In this document: positions 1-52,688 of the stretch, piece after piece
How the letters are laid out: each line of letters opens with the position of its first letter
Position numbering within the stretch: position 1 is the first letter of the stretch
Assembly: GCA_017515285.1 (NCBI GenBank)
Contig: JAFWGN010000002.1
Location: 1-64,000 of the forward strand
Direction: 5' to 3'
Length of the DNA stretch: 64,000 nt
Source of the DNA: Candidatus Saccharimonadota bacterium
Lineage (GTDB): Bacteria; Patescibacteriota; Saccharimonadia; Saccharimonadales; Saccharimonadaceae
The notes under the pieces: generated by a model
What the model was told of the DNA's origin: nothing
The model's database searches: none
Seen by the model: the letters and a program-made list of their open reading frames with translations, nothing else
Made by a program: the position numbers and the translations under genes

Positions 1-450
1 AGAGGACCAAGTGCCGCTTACGGCAGAGATGTTTTGGGTGGTGTCGCCGGTTTTGGTGAGGGAGTTCGAGGTTCCGGCCATGGAGAGGAAGACGGAATAG
101 TAGTTGCCGGCGGAGAAGACGCCAATGGTTTTCTTGGCGACCTTCATGGTGCCGACGTTGCCGGCGTCGTTGGCGCCGGTCGGGACGATTTCTCCGAAGT
201 CAACGTCGCCGTGGCCGAGGTCGGAAGTGGAACCGTTGCCATAGTCCGGATCGAGAGTGAGAGAAAGGCTTTTCCAGGTTACGTCGGTGGTGGCGTCGGT
301 GGCGGAGACTTCGGAGATAAGGGCGGGGACGATTACAAATGCGGATATGAACAGGAAGAGAGATAGAACCGAACCGTAAAGACACCTTCGATGAGTTTTA
401 AATTTATGAACATAGGTCTCATCGTGAGGACAAATGATTTGCTTTGACAT
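1..450 (-). CDS. FISUMP-family surface protein, N-terminal part (runs off the window)
   Basis: The reverse strand is open from an ATG at 450 to the window edge, 150 codons. Residues about 20-47 are a hydrophobic export segment (LFLFISAFVIVPALISEVSA). Behind it comes the N-terminal domain shared with the genes at 46210-49599 and 50344-52446. All three have a VTW..(L/I)SLTLDP opening, a GD(V/I).F pattern and a K.GVxxxGNYY-like stretch. The paralogues end in FISUMP domains, so the missing part probably does too. A GAGAGG ribosome site lies about 11 nt before the ATG. Expression is from the structured leader at 515-705. Function is unknown; adhesion or surface display is an inference from the family. 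Confidence 0.75.
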   Translation of the reverse strand, partial: MSKQIICPHDETYVHKFKTHRRCLYGSVLSLFLFISAFVIVPALISEVSATDATTDVTWKSLSLTLDPDYGNGSTSDLGHGDVDFGEIVPTGANDAGNVGTMKVAKKTIGVFSAGNYYSVFLSMAGTSNSLTKTGDTTQNISAVSGTWSS

Positions 451-514: not shown

Positions 515-705
515 GGCACCGCGAGGGTGCAATAGACTATCACCGTGCCTTAGGTTACGAACAGGTTATTACGTAATACACCAACACGAATGGTCTCCTT
601 CACGGCGCCATAAAGATTGGTGTAAAAATCTTCGACTTGTCCTCCTAATGTACGGTGGTTGTTTTTTGGTTATGAAACAACTAACACTGTGATAATCTAT
701 TGCAC
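515..705 (-). promoter_or_regulatory. Structured 5' leader RNA, copy 1 (long-range stem plus invariant 12-nt block)
   Basis: The arms at 689-705 and 527-543 are complementary over 17 bp with one G-U wobble. The 5' arm begins about 6 nt after the -10 box, so it is the predicted start of the transcript. A second hairpin (658-664 with 675-681) follows the 5' arm. The block CCTCGCGGTGCC (complement of 515-526) follows the 3' arm and precedes a U-run. A GGCAC segment (complement of 545-549) can pair with the GTGCC of that block. The same plan occurs at 49681-49938 and 52490-52654. This accounts for the gene-free stretch 451-795. I do not recognise it as a known riboswitch class. Confidence 0.65.
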
Positions 706-46209: not shown

Positions 46210-49200
46210 TTACTTTTTGGCGCAACGCAAGGAGAGTGCGTTTACGGGATTAAATGAACCGTAGTAATAATCATTTACGGAGAAATTATATTTTAATCCA
46301 TCACCGTTGACCGAACGGTAATTTGACCAATAATACCCTAGCGTCCCGTATTCTATACGGCCCAACGACGCCGACATATGACGTCCCGCGAGGGTAAAGC
46401 TTGCCGGAATTTGGCGAACTTCATAGGAAGAATAATATTCATTAAGATGAAGTGATGGTTGAGTCTGGTCTGCACTCGTAACTGGCAAGTTCCATCCATA
46501 GGGACATATTGAATCTGGAGCCGTTACACCTTTTGCGTCAGGCGCAACGCTTCCTGCAACACTCGCGTACCAGTTGTAATAATAATCCACGCCGTCGTCG
46601 TTTGTATATTTTGCGCTCTCTGATTCTTCTGGGTCCCAGGAGGATTTGGAGTTGAGGTCGGTGTTGGTGGAAGTGAGGTTGTAAGTGCCGGCGAAGTCGG
46701 CGAGATTGAGGGCGAGATTGTTCGTCATCCAGCAGTTGCCGTCTTTGAGCTTCGTGACGACGTAAGTCTTGTCGTCACGGGAGTCGGTGAGGGCGATTTG
46801 TTGATGTTCTGTCATCGTGGAGCAGGCGTTCCAGTTTTGCATGGTGCCGGAGGATTTAATCCACTTCGCGTAGAGCTGAAGGCCCGTCGAACTTAAGTCG
46901 CCGGTCGTGATAGTTTCGTTCGGACCGTAGGTCGTACCGAAGCCGTCGGCCTGGGTATTCCAGCCGGCGAAGCCGTAGCCGGAGCGGGCGAAGTTTGGAG
47001 CAGTCAAAATCGTGTCGGTATTGCTGCTAGCGCTTTGGTCGGACATTGAGCCAGAAGTGTTTCCATTTCCGTCGTAACAAATCTTCCCCGCTTCGCAGGT
47101 AGAAGCGACCGCTTCGCTTGAGGCATTGCTGCCTTGCCGAGCAACACAACGGGCGCTGAAGCCGAATTCCTTGTTATATGAATATAATTCCTTCTTATCA
47201 CCAATTAAATGTAGGACTGTAGACTTTTGATTTTCGTCTTGGGATGACATATAATACGAATCAATGCTTCGATTATTTATATTCCCTTCTACTGAGTAAT
47301 ACCCAGCTAAGTTTAGCGAAATTGGAGTCATTAAATATGGAAGATTATTAGAACTTTCACTATTATTTGATGTTAATCCATATATATCAAACAATAATTG
47401 CGAATATGACTTGTTGCCCGAAGTCGGTGGTAATGACCAGGCTTTTGCGCAGATACTATCAGTCACATCAGATTCATAATAGCCGGCGGATTCTGCTGTA
47501 GCAGCATAATAATTATAATAGTCGCCAAAATACTGAGGAGCGTGGGGAGCCATCCACTCTACGTCTTTGTAGTTGACATAGAGGTCTTCATGTGCTCTTG
47601 ATTGCAAATAAGGGTCATATTGGATTATAGAACCAGTATTTGGGTTAACCTGAGTGTAGGCAAAATTTATATTACTATAACTTCTCGGGTGTGCAGACAG
47701 CCCACTATACAAGATTTGATTCGAGGATGAGCATACGCCAGGAGATGTGCATTTTGTAGCCCATCGATATTCAGGGGCAGCATCGTAATTTCGTTGCAAG
47801 CCAGATTGAAACTGCGCTTCTTGTGCGGAACCATAATAGTTTTCAGCAAACTGCGCAAATGTCGTCCAGCCGTTTTCTGCCATAACGGTAGAAACAGATT
47901 CAGATGGATCCCAGTAATTTTTGGAGTTGAGGTCGGTATTAGCTGCCGTCAGCCTCTTTGTTCCAGCGAAGCTGGCAAGATCTAGGTCGAGATTTTGTAC
48001 CATCCAGCAATTCCCGTCGGCGAGGCGGCGGACGAGATAGGGTTTTTGGTCACGATTGTCAATGAGCTTGAAAGAGCCGGCTTTTTCCATGTTGGCACTT
48101 CCAGCGGCGACATACCAACCGGTCGTATCGACAGAGCCGTCGATGCCGGCAGAATGGAGAGCGGTACCAGTCCCCGTGTAGTCATAGAGAACCGCACTCT
48201 CGCCGAGGGCGTTGCCCCAAGCGTTGGTGTTTTTGCAGATACTGCCGGTCATTTGTTGCATTTCTGTAATCAAGTAGTCGGAGCCGTTCCGGGTCTTGCT
48301 TTGGAGGCCGGCATACATCGCGGAGGCAACTTCGTTATTTGAGGAGTCTTCGTAGCGGGAGATGTAATCATAGCCGTAATCCGCAATATGAATCCAAAAG
48401 TCATATTCGCCGTCCATGTTAGCGCCGCCGGCGGTCTTGCCGTCGGGGTTAGACGGAACGATGCAGTTTAGGGTTGTCTTGTTGCTCGAGACTACGAAGT
48501 CGGAAGCGGCGGAACCTATCATGCATTTATAGGTGTCGGTTGCGTAGGCGCTGAGACCGGTCGTGTTGTAGCCGGAGCTGGTTTTGTTGGCTTCGGTGAC
48601 AGAGTGCGGGACGAGATAAACGGAAACCTGAGACTTTTCGAGAGTCGGGACGGACATCGCAAGGTCGAAACTTAGGGTTTCCATGTCGCTTCCGGTGATA
48701 TATTGCAGGCTACGAGAGACGTTGTTCGAGACCGTGTCGAGGCTCGATGCGCTGGCGACGGCAGTGTAGATTATTGTGTTTTCATACTTGCCAGCAACGA
48801 GAGAAGTGTCGGCAAAGGCGGTATAATAAATGTCAAAATGATCCTTTGTCGTGTCGCCCGTAATAGCGTCGCCGGCGGAAGTGTAATGGCCGAAGCCGAG
48901 AGGGTTTGTCGTCGTGGCTTTATAAATCTGCTGGGCGCCCGTACTTTGGCTCGGGACGCCCGCCCAGAGACCGGAGTTGTAGACGCTGGCGTTGTTCGCA
49001 TAAGTTAGAGGTTGACCGAGGAGGGAGTCATAGTTCGCATAGGTCGCGACGGAAGAAAAAGGAGTCTCGAACGTAGTCGAAGTCGGAACGGCATAGCCCC
49101 AGCCTTTGCCAGAAAATGCGGTTGGAGCGGAAGCGTCCGTCCCAGTCCAGGTCGAAGTATGGGCGTTAATGGATGAGTTAGTGTCGCCGGTAAGGACGAG

Positions 49201-49599
49201 AGCGTTAGAGTTGCTTCCAGTCGAGAGATAAACGCTGTAATAAGTTCCGGGGGTAGAGATGCCGATGGTTTTCTTGATAACTTCCTGAGTCCCAATATTG
49301 TCGCCGTCGACGGAACTCGGAGCAACAAAGTTGAAAAGGACGTCGCCGTGGCCGGTCGCACCAATCTGATTATTACTTTCCGTGGGGTTCTCCGGGTCAT
49401 AATCTGGGTTCAGGGTTAGGGAGATTCCCGTCCAGTTGACGGCGGTTTTGACGTTTTCCGCGGCGTGAACCTCGGCGCGCATGGTCGGAATTAGAGCAAA
49501 CCCAAGTATAAAAACGATGAATGCCGTGAGGGATGCCCGTAGCGCTCGCGCGATAATCATTCGTTCCTTGAGATTTCCTAGGTTTTGTCGGATTTGCAT
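46210..49599 (-). CDS. Large FISUMP-domain surface protein with InlB-type repeat
   Basis: 1129 residues. An export segment lies at about 22-45 (LTAFIVFILGFALIPTMRAE). The family N-terminal domain (about 50-290) follows. Two FISUMP (Fib_succ_major type) domains are seen: one with VRRLADGNCWMVQNLDLDL at about 535 and one with VTKLKDGNCWMTNNLALNL near 960. A Listeria-Bacteroides (InlB) repeat, GYGFAGWNTQADGFGTTY...LQLYAKW, lies between them. Tyr, Ser and Asn are abundant. No LPXTG or C-terminal membrane segment is present, so anchoring would be by the N-terminus or by secretion. AAAGGAGG precedes the ATG behind leader copy 2. Adhesion is inferred. Confidence 0.85.
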   Translation of the reverse strand: MQIRQNLGNLKERMIIARALRASLTAFIVFILGFALIPTMRAEVHAAENVKTAVNWTGISLTLNPDYDPENPTESNNQIGATGHGDVLFNFVAPSSVDGDNIGTQEVIKKTIGISTPGTYYSVYLSTGSNSNALVLTGDTNSSINAHTSTWTGTDASAPTAFSGKGWGYAVPTSTTFETPFSSVATYANYDSLLGQPLTYANNASVYNSGLWAGVPSQSTGAQQIYKATTTNPLGFGHYTSAGDAITGDTTKDHFDIYYTAFADTSLVAGKYENTIIYTAVASASSLDTVSNNVSRSLQYITGSDMETLSFDLAMSVPTLEKSQVSVYLVPHSVTEANKTSSGYNTTGLSAYATDTYKCMIGSAASDFVVSSNKTTLNCIVPSNPDGKTAGGANMDGEYDFWIHIADYGYDYISRYEDSSNNEVASAMYAGLQSKTRNGSDYLITEMQQMTGSICKNTNAWGNALGESAVLYDYTGTGTALHSAGIDGSVDTTGWYVAAGSANMEKAGSFKLIDNRDQKPYLVRRLADGNCWMVQNLDLDLASFAGTKRLTAANTDLNSKNYWDPSESVSTVMAENGWTTFAQFAENYYGSAQEAQFQSGLQRNYDAAPEYRWATKCTSPGVCSSSNQILYSGLSAHPRSYSNINFAYTQVNPNTGSIIQYDPYLQSRAHEDLYVNYKDVEWMAPHAPQYFGDYYNYYAATAESAGYYESDVTDSICAKAWSLPPTSGNKSYSQLLFDIYGLTSNNSESSNNLPYLMTPISLNLAGYYSVEGNINNRSIDSYYMSSQDENQKSTVLHLIGDKKELYSYNKEFGFSARCVARQGSNASSEAVASTCEAGKICYDGNGNTSGSMSDQSASSNTDTILTAPNFARSGYGFAGWNTQADGFGTTYGPNETITTGDLSSTGLQLYAKWIKSSGTMQNWNACSTMTEHQQIALTDSRDDKTYVVTKLKDGNCWMTNNLALNLADFAGTYNLTSTNTDLNSKSSWDPEESESAKYTNDDGVDYYYNWYASVAGSVAPDAKGVTAPDSICPYGWNLPVTSADQTQPSLHLNEYYSSYEVRQIPASFTLAGRHMSASLGRIEYGTLGYYWSNYRSVNGDGLKYNFSVNDYYYGSFNPVNALSLRCAKK

Positions 49600-49680: not shown

Positions 49681-49938
49681 GGCACCGCGAGGTGCGAAAA
49701 CCAATAGAATCACGCTTCCCAAAATGGGTGGCGTTTCAGCTTCAGACGACTAACGAATGAACCCGAACTCTGTTGGTACCCTACACGGTGCCTATTCTTG
49801 GTTCCATTTTGTCGTTAATCGAACATAAAGCCGATGACGCCTAGTTGAACACTTTGGGAGCTAGACTTTAAGCTAGCAGATGTTACTGAACGTTTTGGTC
49901 TTTTTATACCAAAACTGTGATTATATTGGTTTTCGCAC
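49681..49938 (-). promoter_or_regulatory. Structured 5' leader RNA, copy 2 (22-bp long-range stem)
   Basis: The arms 49917-49938 and 49692-49713 are complementary at 21 of 22 positions and enclose about 200 nt. A hairpin (49892-49899 with 49908-49915) lies next to the 5' arm. CCTCGCGGTGCC, here at the complement of 49681-49692, follows the 3' arm and leads into a U-rich run. GGCACCG (complement of 49786-49792) can pair with CGGTGCC of the block. It fills most of the gene-free stretch 49600-50023. Confidence 0.7.
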
Positions 49939-49943
49939 TTATT

Positions 49944-49972
49944 ATTTTAGCGCGAGCTTTAGCGTAATTCAA
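49944..49972 (-). promoter_or_regulatory. Promoter of the FISUMP gene at 46210-49599
   Basis: TTGAAT (complement of 49967-49972), 17 bp, TAAAAT (complement of 49944-49949). The spacer is nearly identical to that at 52660-52688. Confidence 0.75.
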
Positions 49973-50343: not shown

Positions 50344-52446
50344 TTATTTTTTAACACAGCGTGTATACGCTCGCGATGCGCGGTTGTAGCCGTAGTCATC
50401 TCTGACGTATATAACGCTGTCCGTATAAAGTAAAAAGAACGTATTCCGATCTCGGTCGTAGGGCGCCGGAAGATTGGTGTTGTATGGGGTGCTAAAATTA
50501 TACTGGCTATAATGAACTATGTTAAGCGGAAACCGCGAGACGGCAAGAATACTATCGAGAGATTGTGTTAGCGAATAGCTGTTTAGTAGTTTAGCCCAAG
50601 ATTTATCCGTGCTTGAGCCGACTCTCGGCAACTGCCAGCCGGACGGGCAAATTGAGTCCGGGGCAGTGGCCGGACTGAGCATGGTGCTTGTTCCGCTTCC
50701 CGCTGTTACGGCGTACCAGTCGTATACCCACGATGGCGCATATAGATTCGTGTTATACTCATATCCTGGGGACGGCTGACTGCCAGTGTTAGCTCCGGGA
50801 TTCCAGGAGGTTTTGCTGTTGAGGTCGGTGTTCTCGGGGGTGAGGTTGTGAGTGCCGGCGAAGTCGGCGAGGTTGAGGGCGAGGTTTGAGGTCATCCAAC
50901 AGTTGCCGTCCTTCAATTTGGCGACGGAATAGGTGTTATTGTCACGGGAGTCGGTCAGAGCAATAACATCGTGAGTTGACATGGCGGAACACTGGGCGGT
51001 AGTGAAGCTTTGCATGGTGCCGGAGGAAGCGAGCCAGTGGGCGTAGAGTTGGAGACCCTCGGTCGAGAGGTCGCCGGTAGCGATAGTTTCGTTCGGACCA
51101 TAGAGACTGCCAGAAGTATCGTCGGCGGTCGTAGACCAACCAGTAAAGGCGTAACCGGAACGAATGAAGGAGGGGGTGTTTAGCATGGCGTTTGAGTTTG
51201 AGGAGGCGGTTTTATCGGACATGGTTCCTGAGTCGGCGCCGTTCCCGGCGTAGCAGATTTTGCTAGCGGAACAGGCGAAGACGAAGGAAGCGATGTCGTT
51301 ATTACTGTCGCGATAATGGCTGAGGTAGTTTAAGGTTTCTTTCGCGGGAGTGGCGACTTGGACCCAGAAGTCATATTCGCCAAGAGTGGCGACTGTATTG
51401 TTACCACTAGCGTCGGTTGAGCCAGTGGAGCCGAGGCTCGGGAGGGCGCAGAGAATAGTGACGCTTTGACCGGAGGAAGCAACCGAAGTAACGGAGCAGG
51501 TCGGGAAGTCGGTCTTGGTGAGATTGTCAATCGAGTAGCTGTTCGCAATTATTGTTGCGTGAGGGACAAGATAAACTTCGACGTCGCTAGCTGCAATCGA
51601 GTTGTTGCTTGAGGCAAGGTCGAGAAGGAGAGTTTCCGTACTTCCGGCGGTGGCGGAGGCGTTGTCGCGGGCGATGTTGAAGCTAGTCGTGTCGAGGCTG
51701 GCAGTTGAAGCGAGAGCGGTATAAACGACTTTATTCTCGTAGACTCCACTTAAAGCGTCAGTATCGACCATGATGGAATAATAAATATCGAAAGTGTCGC
51801 CAGAGGAGAAGCCGGCCGCGGCGTTGGTTGAGTTATAATAAATTCGCTCGATATTTGCGGAGGTTTTTACAGGAGACCAGGAACCGGTATTATAGACGGC
51901 AGCACCAACACCGGTCTTGGTTAAGTTATTGGCGGTAACGTCGGTGGCGCTTGCAAGATAAGAATCATAGGCCGAAAGAGTGACGGAAGTTTCTGTGGTT
52001 GGAACGGCATAGCCCCAAGAAGTTGAGGCAAAGCCGGTCGTGACCGAGGTGGAAATTGCGGGGATGGTTTGGGTGGCGACGGCGGAGGTCTTGAGGGTGT
52101 TATCGTCGGTTGGGGTTGAGAGATAGACAGCATAATAGTTCCCCTCCGTCGTCACTTCGACCTGTTTCTTGACAACTTTTTGAGTGCCATAATTACCAAT
52201 AGACGTATCACGGACGGAAGGAATAACTTCGCCAAAATCGATGTCACCATGAGGGTCAAGAGTTAAGGAAATGGTGCTCCAAGTTACGCCAGCGGAGACG
52301 GTTTCCGCGGCGTAGGTTTTGGCGACGAGGCACGGAATAGTCAAAAATCCAAAAATAAAAAGCGCTAGGGCGAGAATCGAGCCGCCTAGCATCCGGTTCA
52401 GAAATTTCCTTTCTTTAATTCCCCCTAACGTATCTTTGGCCAGCAT
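50344..52446 (-). CDS. FISUMP-domain surface protein with InlB-type repeat
   Basis: 700 residues. An export segment (about 20-45, LALALFIFGFLTIPCLVAKT) is followed by the family N-terminal domain, with VTWSTISLTLDP and GNYYAVYLST. An InlB-type repeat (GYAFTGWSTTADD...LQLYAHW, about 435-485) and one FISUMP domain (VAKLKDGNCWMTSNLALNL, about 515-700) follow. It is a shorter paralogue of 46210-49599, with one FISUMP copy instead of two. AAAAGGAGGG precedes the ATG behind leader copy 3. Confidence 0.85.
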   Translation of the reverse strand: MLAKDTLGGIKERKFLNRMLGGSILALALFIFGFLTIPCLVAKTYAAETVSAGVTWSTISLTLDPHGDIDFGEVIPSVRDTSIGNYGTQKVVKKQVEVTTEGNYYAVYLSTPTDDNTLKTSAVATQTIPAISTSVTTGFASTSWGYAVPTTETSVTLSAYDSYLASATDVTANNLTKTGVGAAVYNTGSWSPVKTSANIERIYYNSTNAAAGFSSGDTFDIYYSIMVDTDALSGVYENKVVYTALASTASLDTTSFNIARDNASATAGSTETLLLDLASSNNSIAASDVEVYLVPHATIIANSYSIDNLTKTDFPTCSVTSVASSGQSVTILCALPSLGSTGSTDASGNNTVATLGEYDFWVQVATPAKETLNYLSHYRDSNNDIASFVFACSASKICYAGNGADSGTMSDKTASSNSNAMLNTPSFIRSGYAFTGWSTTADDTSGSLYGPNETIATGDLSTEGLQLYAHWLASSGTMQSFTTAQCSAMSTHDVIALTDSRDNNTYSVAKLKDGNCWMTSNLALNLADFAGTHNLTPENTDLNSKTSWNPGANTGSQPSPGYEYNTNLYAPSWVYDWYAVTAGSGTSTMLSPATAPDSICPSGWQLPRVGSSTDKSWAKLLNSYSLTQSLDSILAVSRFPLNIVHYSQYNFSTPYNTNLPAPYDRDRNTFFLLYTDSVIYVRDDYGYNRASRAYTRCVKK

Positions 52447-52489: not shown

Positions 52490-52654
52490 GGCACCGCGAG
52501 GATTTGCAAAGAACCAACAGTGCTTCACCGCATACGCGATTACAGCGCTACTGGCCCTCGTCGGTACCGTTTTTCTGCACTTTAATCGCGAACTAATATG
52601 TATAAATAATATGTGCGGTTTTATATAAAATAAAACACTGTTGATTCTTTGCAC
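52490..52654 (-). promoter_or_regulatory. Structured 5' leader RNA, copy 3 (18-bp long-range stem)
   Basis: The arms 52636-52653 and 52505-52522 pair over 18 bp with one G-U wobble. A hairpin (52618-52624 with 52630-52636) adjoins the 5' arm. CCTCGCGGTGCC (complement of 52490-52501) is followed by GTTTTT. CGGTACCG (52562-52569) can pair with the CGGTGCCG of the block through one G-U pair, where copy 2 has a Watson-Crick pair. It occupies the gene-free stretch 52447-52794. Confidence 0.7.
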
Positions 52655-52659
52655 TTATA

Positions 52660-52688
52660 ATTTTAGCACGAGCTTTAGCGTGATTCAA
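52660..52688 (-). promoter_or_regulatory. Promoter of the FISUMP gene at 50344-52446
   Basis: TTGAAT (complement of 52683-52688), 17 bp, TAAAAT (complement of 52660-52665), with a CGCTAAAGCTCG core in the spacer that is also found at 49944-49972. Confidence 0.75.

What the first reader, a model, noticed from the sequence alone, without database searches (positions are those of the whole stretch)
49681..49972. A leader-RNA family with a sequence-variable but pairing-conserved 17-22 bp stem controls three FISUMP surface-protein genes
Seen: three leaders (515-739, 49681-49972, 52490-52688) share one plan. Each has a 17-bp-spaced promoter followed by ATAAGTGC, a 5' arm that begins about 6 nt after the -10, a small hairpin beside it, a variable middle of about 110-200 nt, a complementary 3' arm, and then the identical block CCTCGCGGTGCC and a U-run. 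Arm sequences differ between copies (AATAGATTATCAC, CCAATATAATCAC, AAAGAATCAACAG cores), yet pairing is 16-21 Watson-Crick pairs with at most one wobble or mismatch. That is covariation. The arm starting at +1 suggests an RNA function: attenuation, stability or ligand sensing. I know of no described class with this layout.
Basis: partly seen in the sequence, partly recalled or inferred. Interest (0 to 1): 0.88.

Follow-up and report, generated by a model that had tools for sequence, protein, structure and literature searches.

The report
Shape-conserved leader RNA before adhesin genes
Gut Saccharibacteria place a roughly 130-base RNA hairpin, whose sequence is almost free to vary but whose length, pairing, tip and tail are fixed, in front of families of up to about 40 surface-protein genes, where it most likely decides whether transcription stops early or runs into the gene.

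Summary
The three window leaders (minus strand) belong to a family: 6 copies in this genome and up to 43 in related Saccharibacteria genomes; 183 distinct copies were analysed.

In 182 copies, 14 base pairs of the terminal stem pair 99% of the time, against 48% between copies. A·C mismatches are almost absent (2) beside U·G/G·U pairs (187), as expected of an RNA. The stem starts 3-6 nt after a TATAAT box. The whole rod holds about 40 pairs whatever its sequence.

M and M' covary between species. Together they can form a long-range intrinsic-terminator helix.

Downstream genes encode secreted proteins, mostly with FISUMP domains; of the window's three, one is a weak hit, one has none, one is truncated. 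No Rfam family matches. The family is confined to part of one Saccharibacteria genus.

Most likely function: a cis-acting transcription attenuator (inferred, not shown). Locus-specific barcodes were tested and not supported. At orthologous loci the inner rod and the gene are replaced independently, possibly partly an assembly effect.

The parts
46210..49599 (-). Gene downstream of leader B (1129 aa, N-terminal hydrophobic segment, List_Bact_rpt/Flg_new repeat; no FISUMP model hit)
49681..49692 (-). Leader B: M' block CCTCGCGGTGCC, followed by U-run (TGTTTTG)
49693..49716 (-). Leader B: 3' arm of terminal stem P1
49780..49798 (-). Leader B: apical motif M (AGAATAGGCACCGTGTAGG), complementary to M' and U-run
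   Evidence: score 35.5; shuffled median 15.5
49913..49937 (-). Leader B: 5' arm of P1, starts at the predicted +1
49944..49972 (-). Leader B: promoter TTGAAT-17-TAAAAT
50344..52446 (-). Gene downstream of leader C (700 aa, secreted, weak FISUMP hit TIGR02145 E=1.4e-7)
52490..52501 (-). Leader C: M' block CCTCGCGGTGCC, followed by GTTTTT
52505..52525 (-). Leader C: 3' arm of P1
52556..52574 (-). Leader C: apical motif M (AAAAACGGTACCGACGAGG)
   Evidence: score 39.5
52633..52653 (-). Leader C: 5' arm of P1
52660..52688 (-). Leader C: promoter TTGAAT-17-TAAAAT
1..450 (-). Gene downstream of leader A (signal-peptide-like N-terminus MSKQIICPHDE..., runs off the contig end)
515..526 (-). Leader A: M' block CCTCGCGGTGCC, followed by ATTTTT
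527..549 (-). Leader A: 3' arm of P1
597..611 (-). Leader A: apical motif M (ATGGCGCCGTGAAGG)
   Evidence: score 29
683..705 (-). Leader A: 5' arm of P1
711..739 (-). Leader A: promoter TTGCAT-17-TAAACT (weaker than B and C)
   Evidence: below threshold

Best explanation
A cis-acting 5' leader RNA that works as a transcription attenuator for genes of secreted, mostly FISUMP-domain, proteins. Transcription starts at the base of a rod-like hairpin of about 40 pairs, whose sequence is nearly free but whose size and pairing are fixed. The rod's tip presents motif M (consensus AAAAYGGCRYCGYRAGG). As RNA polymerase finishes the rod it makes M' (CCUNGCGGUGCC) and a U-run. M' can pair with M to give a 12-18 bp, GC-rich helix whose A-tract and U-tract also pair: an intrinsic terminator with a split, long-range stem. 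A short local hairpin GCACC-N4-6-GGUGC sits at the same place in most copies. If M' is kept from M, the polymerase reads through; in several species M' then pairs with a third copy (M2) about 25-40 nt downstream, before the ribosome-binding site. SHOWN from sequence: rod, pairing, wobble signature, M:M' covariation, promoter and U-run placement, secreted-protein genes downstream. INFERRED: that M:M' terminates transcription, that M' choosing M, M2 or neither is the switch, and that the rod's fixed length matters geometrically. UNKNOWN: the signal.
For: P1 own pairing 99% against 48% across copies; wobble U.G 180, G.U 7, A.C 2. At orthologous loci, changed P1 pairs are 120 two-sided, 54 one-sided and 19 broken. 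M:M' complementarity has median 36 against shuffled 15.5 and covaries: M' position 4 is A-U 106, G-C 48, U-A 4; position 6 is G-C 157, A-U 8; A-tract:U-tract pairs at positions 14-18. Every copy has at least 5 T in the 8 nt after M'. A -10 box with at least 5 of 6 matches lies 3-6 nt before P1 in 179 of 182 copies. The rod has 40 enclosing pairs, IQR 38-43; M to M' is 51 nt, IQR 47-53. Terminator-like hairpins with U-tails are found at M' of A and B. 114 of 122 copies with enough downstream sequence precede an ORF of at least 200 aa, 111 of those with an N-terminal hydrophobic segment. M2 complementarity is far above shuffles in G005, G062, G164 and G154, and M':M2 is the predicted fold of the 5'UTR there in most copies shown.
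Against: No transcript data. Without pseudoknots the minimum-energy fold of the leader forms P1 in 179 of 183 copies and M:M' in only 3, so terminator formation needs a pseudoknot, a kinetic route or partial opening of the rod, none of which was modelled. In window leader C the local terminator hairpin is weak (not found by the scan). M2 is near background in the window's own genome and weak in G012, so it cannot be an essential part. No ligand or trans factor is known.
Confidence: 0.5

Rival explanations
1. An independent small RNA of about 150 nt: P1 closes its ends, M' plus U-run is its ordinary terminator, and the downstream gene is only a neighbour or receives residual read-through. M at the tip could pair in trans with M' of other leaders.
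For: Promoter at one end and U-run at the other delimit a self-contained RNA. All copies in a genome share M and M', so trans pairing between copies is possible.
Against: 114 of 122 copies sit directly before a same-strand gene of at least 200 aa, nearly all with a secreted-protein N-terminus. M2 in the 5'UTR of several species ties the leader to the mRNA. No second promoter between U-run and gene was found in the window leaders.
Confidence: 0.17
2. A 5' stability or processing element: the duplexed 5' end protects the mRNA, and the 40-bp rod and M':M2 hairpin are RNase III substrates.
For: The first transcribed nucleotides are paired in essentially all copies; the rods are long and well paired.
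Against: Does not explain M:M' covariation, the A-tract/U-tract pairing or the universal U-run.
Confidence: 0.15
3. A DNA-level recombination site (attC-like folded strand): stems are free to vary because only the fold is read, and gene cassettes are exchanged at M'.
For: At orthologous loci the gene is often a different paralogue although the hairpin is identical (L201/L252: hairpin 1.00, protein 0.56; L277/L302: 0.91 and 0.38), and the reverse (L196/L234: 0.68 and 0.91). Alignments change class at or just after the U-run or at M2. Folded-strand sites tolerate sequence change.
Against: The promoter is fixed 3-6 nt before the stem and a U-run follows the tail, which a DNA site does not need. 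Tyrosine recombinase genes do not track with the leader. Exchange could be ordinary homologous recombination or mis-assembly in repeated 5'UTRs.
Confidence: 0.1
4. A metabolite-binding riboswitch.
For: Leader position, possible pseudoknot, terminator-like tail.
Against: Outside the M and M' helix strands no nucleotides are strongly conserved; a pocket would be. No Rfam match at a leader at E<=5 other than sub-threshold chance hits.
Confidence: 0.05

Closest known systems
Leader attenuators with intrinsic terminators (trp/his-type, transcriptional riboswitches)
   Same: Promoter-proximal structured leader, alternative pairings around a GC-rich helix plus U-run, cognate gene downstream
   Different: Terminator stem halves are split between the tip of a 40-bp rod and its tail; no aptamer, no leader peptide seen; rod sequence free; tens of copies per genome
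T-box riboswitch
   Same: On the opposite strand M' reads GGCACCGCG, resembling the T-box element by eye
   Different: Wrong strand for the genes; no Rfam T-box match in the window or the 20 leader loci searched
Integron attC sites
   Same: Imperfect hairpins conserved in fold, not sequence; gene exchange next to them
   Different: Promoter and U-run at fixed positions, tip-to-tail complementarity, no tyrosine recombinase correlation; no attC core-site test was run
Diversity-generating retroelement template RNAs and retron ncRNAs
   Same: RT genes occur in all 8 leader-bearing genomes tested, and a FISUMP gene is a VR-like repeat target elsewhere in the genus
   Different: The leaders collected are not in the RT loci; no A-specific repeats were found in the leader-bearing FISUMP loci tested

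Membership tests
Any Rfam 15 family | Covariance-model match at the leaders | tested here: not met
   (window, gathering) finds only tRNAs; (20 leader loci, E<=5) finds only tRNA and DUF3800-XI elsewhere, plus hits far below gathering scores
Intrinsic-terminator attenuator | GC-rich stem immediately followed by U-tract upstream of the gene | tested here: met
   M:M' complementarity and U-run in all copies; local hairpin at A and B
Intrinsic-terminator attenuator | Conditional termination shown | not testable with these tools
   no transcript data
Riboswitch | Conserved ligand-binding core | tested here: not met
   outside M and M' only variable stems and a U-rich junction
T-box riboswitch | Stem I/antiterminator on the coding strand upstream of the gene | tested here: not met
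   T-box-like letters lie on the strand opposite to the genes; no Rfam hit
Integron attC | Core boxes RYYYAAC/GTTRRRY at the stem base and an integron integrase | not tested
   P1 base mostly reads TGC...GCA, but no attC model was run; recombinase presence does not track with leaders

The most novel reading that the evidence does not exclude
A sequence-independent, geometry-based RNA switch: a rod of fixed length (about 40 bp) holds the two halves of a terminator, at its tip and its tail, apart or brings them together by bending at a U-rich junction. Only shape and length are selected, so rods in one genome share almost no sequence outside M and M'.
Probability: 0.25. Interest if true: 0.88.

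Novelty: new variant of a known kind. Interest (0 to 1): 0.72.

Why it matters
It is a large, apparently undescribed RNA family in bacteria of the candidate phyla radiation, attached to the genes most likely to touch host or prey cells. With up to about 40 paralogous surface-protein genes under copies of one leader, it would show how these tiny genomes control, singly or together, a big adhesin repertoire. It is also an unusually clean natural case of selection on RNA shape with almost none on sequence: 183 sequences with one fold.

Tried and rejected
Rfam at gathering and relaxed thresholds: nothing at the leaders. T-box by resemblance: wrong strand. Barcode hypothesis (arms selected to be distinct within a genome): cross-pairing is the same within genomes (6.89 of 16) as between genomes (6.93) once similar arms are excluded, so not supported. 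Donor loci for replaced inner rods: the listed non-orthologous matches are mostly the M block, and no near-identical full rod was seen. DGR mutagenesis of the leader-bearing genes: no A-specific repeats in the 29 G164 and 29 G062 loci compared; a first blastn try with a strict cut-off found nothing anywhere. Viral contigs: 9 motif hits, none with a rod. Divergent versions in FISUMP-rich relatives lacking M': a generic scan with 118/120 recall on known loci gave 32 scattered hits in 20 stretches (8 after shuffling), none with a shared tail motif. Papers: searches for FISUMP and for Patescibacteria structured RNA found none. Simple clock-like drift of the inner rod does not fit: inner identity is unrelated to flank identity (rho -0.08).

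Full report
WHAT IS THERE. The three leaders are on the minus strand at the stated places. Each reads: promoter; 5' arm of a stem starting 5-6 nt after the -10 box; inner stem; apical loop; 3' arm; CCTCGCGGTGCC; U-run; ribosome-binding site; ATG of a protein with a signal-peptide-like N-terminus. The window begins at the end of its contig (G000:C6 from base 1), so the gene behind leader A is cut off.

THE FAMILY. Exact search for the reverse of the tail block finds 7 places in this genome. Six are leaders; the seventh lacks the layout. In the genus, leaders occur in some species only, from a few to 43 copies per 0.6-0.9 Mb genome. Named examples are Candidatus Saccharibacteria from goat, sheep and roe-deer gut; hits in other phyla lack the hairpin. 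A search of 393 genomes of the order found the motif in 22, nearly all in this genus. The motif drifts between species, so weakly similar versions could have been missed. A motif-free scan of 20 FISUMP-rich stretches from relatives without the motif found no such family; recall on known loci was 118/120.

THE STRUCTURE. The copies were collected by the tail motif M' plus U-run, so conservation of M' is partly by construction; the stem was not used to find them. A complementarity cut-off then kept 183 of 189 candidates. In the first set, 5 of 124 were discarded and look like M or M2 read on the other strand. In 182 copies the 14 outer pairs comprise 2340 Watson-Crick, 187 U.G/G.U, 2 A.C and 19 other pairs. 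Pairing is 99%, against 48% for arms from different copies. The near absence of A.C beside many U.G says the sense-strand RNA is what folds, because a DNA cruciform would tolerate both alike. The U.G:G.U ratio of 180:7 goes with a G-poor 5' half (14% G against 23% in the 3' half). Total enclosing pairs are 40 (IQR 38-43), with a U-rich 5' bulge or side hairpin on the way. M to M' is 51 nt (IQR 47-53).

THE MISSED PART. The apical loop holds M, the reverse complement of M' plus U-run. Score median is 36 against 15.5 for shuffles. M' differs between species and M follows: M' position 4 pairs as A-U 106, G-C 48, U-A 4; position 6 as G-C 157, A-U 8; position 10 as C-G 171, U-G 11; the base after M' as U-A 114, C-G 22, with C.A mismatches in 37. 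Examples are CCTCGTGG with CATGAGG in G007 and G069, and CCTAGCGG with CTAGG or TTAGG in G050 and G067. A third copy, M2, in the sense of M, lies about 25-40 nt downstream of M'. It is strong in G005, G062, G164 and G154, near background in the window genome and weak in G012. Where strong, M':M2 is the predicted fold of the 5'UTR in most copies shown.

GENES. Of 122 copies with at least 900 nt of downstream sequence, 114 precede an ORF of at least 200 aa and 111 of those have an N-terminal hydrophobic segment. Eight of ten sampled proteins carry FISUMP TIGR02145 above cut-off. FISUMP genes occur in 97 of 99 genus genomes, including many without leaders, so the leader is an addition to the gene family in part of the genus.

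EVOLUTION. G062, G154 and G164 share loci with 70-99% identical upstream flanks. Within a locus the outer stem is largely kept, and changed P1 pairs are 120 two-sided, 54 one-sided and 19 broken. This is covariation within orthologues, not a by-product of comparing unrelated copies. The inner rod ranges from identical to unalignable, unrelated to flank identity (rho -0.08). The gene is also exchanged independently of the rod. Recombination among paralogues is the likely cause. Mis-assembly in repeated 5'UTRs is a real caveat for gene exchange; it cannot create new rods. Rods within a genome are no more orthogonal than rods between genomes, so locus barcodes are not supported.

MECHANISM. M:M' plus A-tract/U-tract has the letters of an intrinsic terminator, and its position before the gene makes attenuation the economical reading. 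Duplex energy is about -25 kcal/mol for M:M' and -45 for the rod. With pseudoknots forbidden, the rod wins in 179 of 183 copies. Whether rod and terminator exclude each other was not modelled. A straight 40-bp rod (about 110 angstroms, from general knowledge) would keep M away from M', which follows the rod by only 0-4 nt; a bend at the U-rich junction could bring them together. Either way, constant length is what geometry would demand, but this is inference.

NOVELTY. Not in Rfam 15. The paper searches run here found no description; the library is open-access only. It works like a leader attenuator; membership in any described RNA family was tested only through Rfam and not met.

Noticed in passing
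L396 (G164), L399 and L393 (G139), L398 and L401 (G166), L391 and L397 (G000): Reverse-transcriptase loci of about 360-410 aa with 60-nt repeats that differ only at adenines (e.g. L398 to L379: 0 non-A, 12 A mismatches, near the end of a FISUMP gene): probable diversity-generating retroelements that can target FISUMP genes. RT hits occur in 8 of 8 leader-bearing genomes and in 3 of 8 FISUMP-rich leaderless ones. No shuffled control was run on the A-mismatch scan.
   Followed up: partly
L009:515-562: A DUF3800-XI RNA (RF02975, 50.4 bits, above gathering score) on a leader-bearing contig of G005.
   Followed up: no
window 1-450; many loci of G005, G012, G154: Contigs often end 100-400 nt from M', inside the repeated 5'UTR or gene start; adhesin genes in these genomes are probably under-assembled.
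   Followed up: partly
G062, G154, G164 orthologous loci (e.g. L250/L265, L201/L252, L277/L302): Flanks up to 99% identical while the inner rod is replaced, or rods identical while the gene is a different paralogue; the rate and mechanism are unexplained.
   Followed up: partly
all copies, P1 positions 8-14: Wobble pairs are almost all U on the 5' arm against G on the 3' arm (180 to 7), with position 10 U.G in 67 of 182 copies.
   Followed up: no
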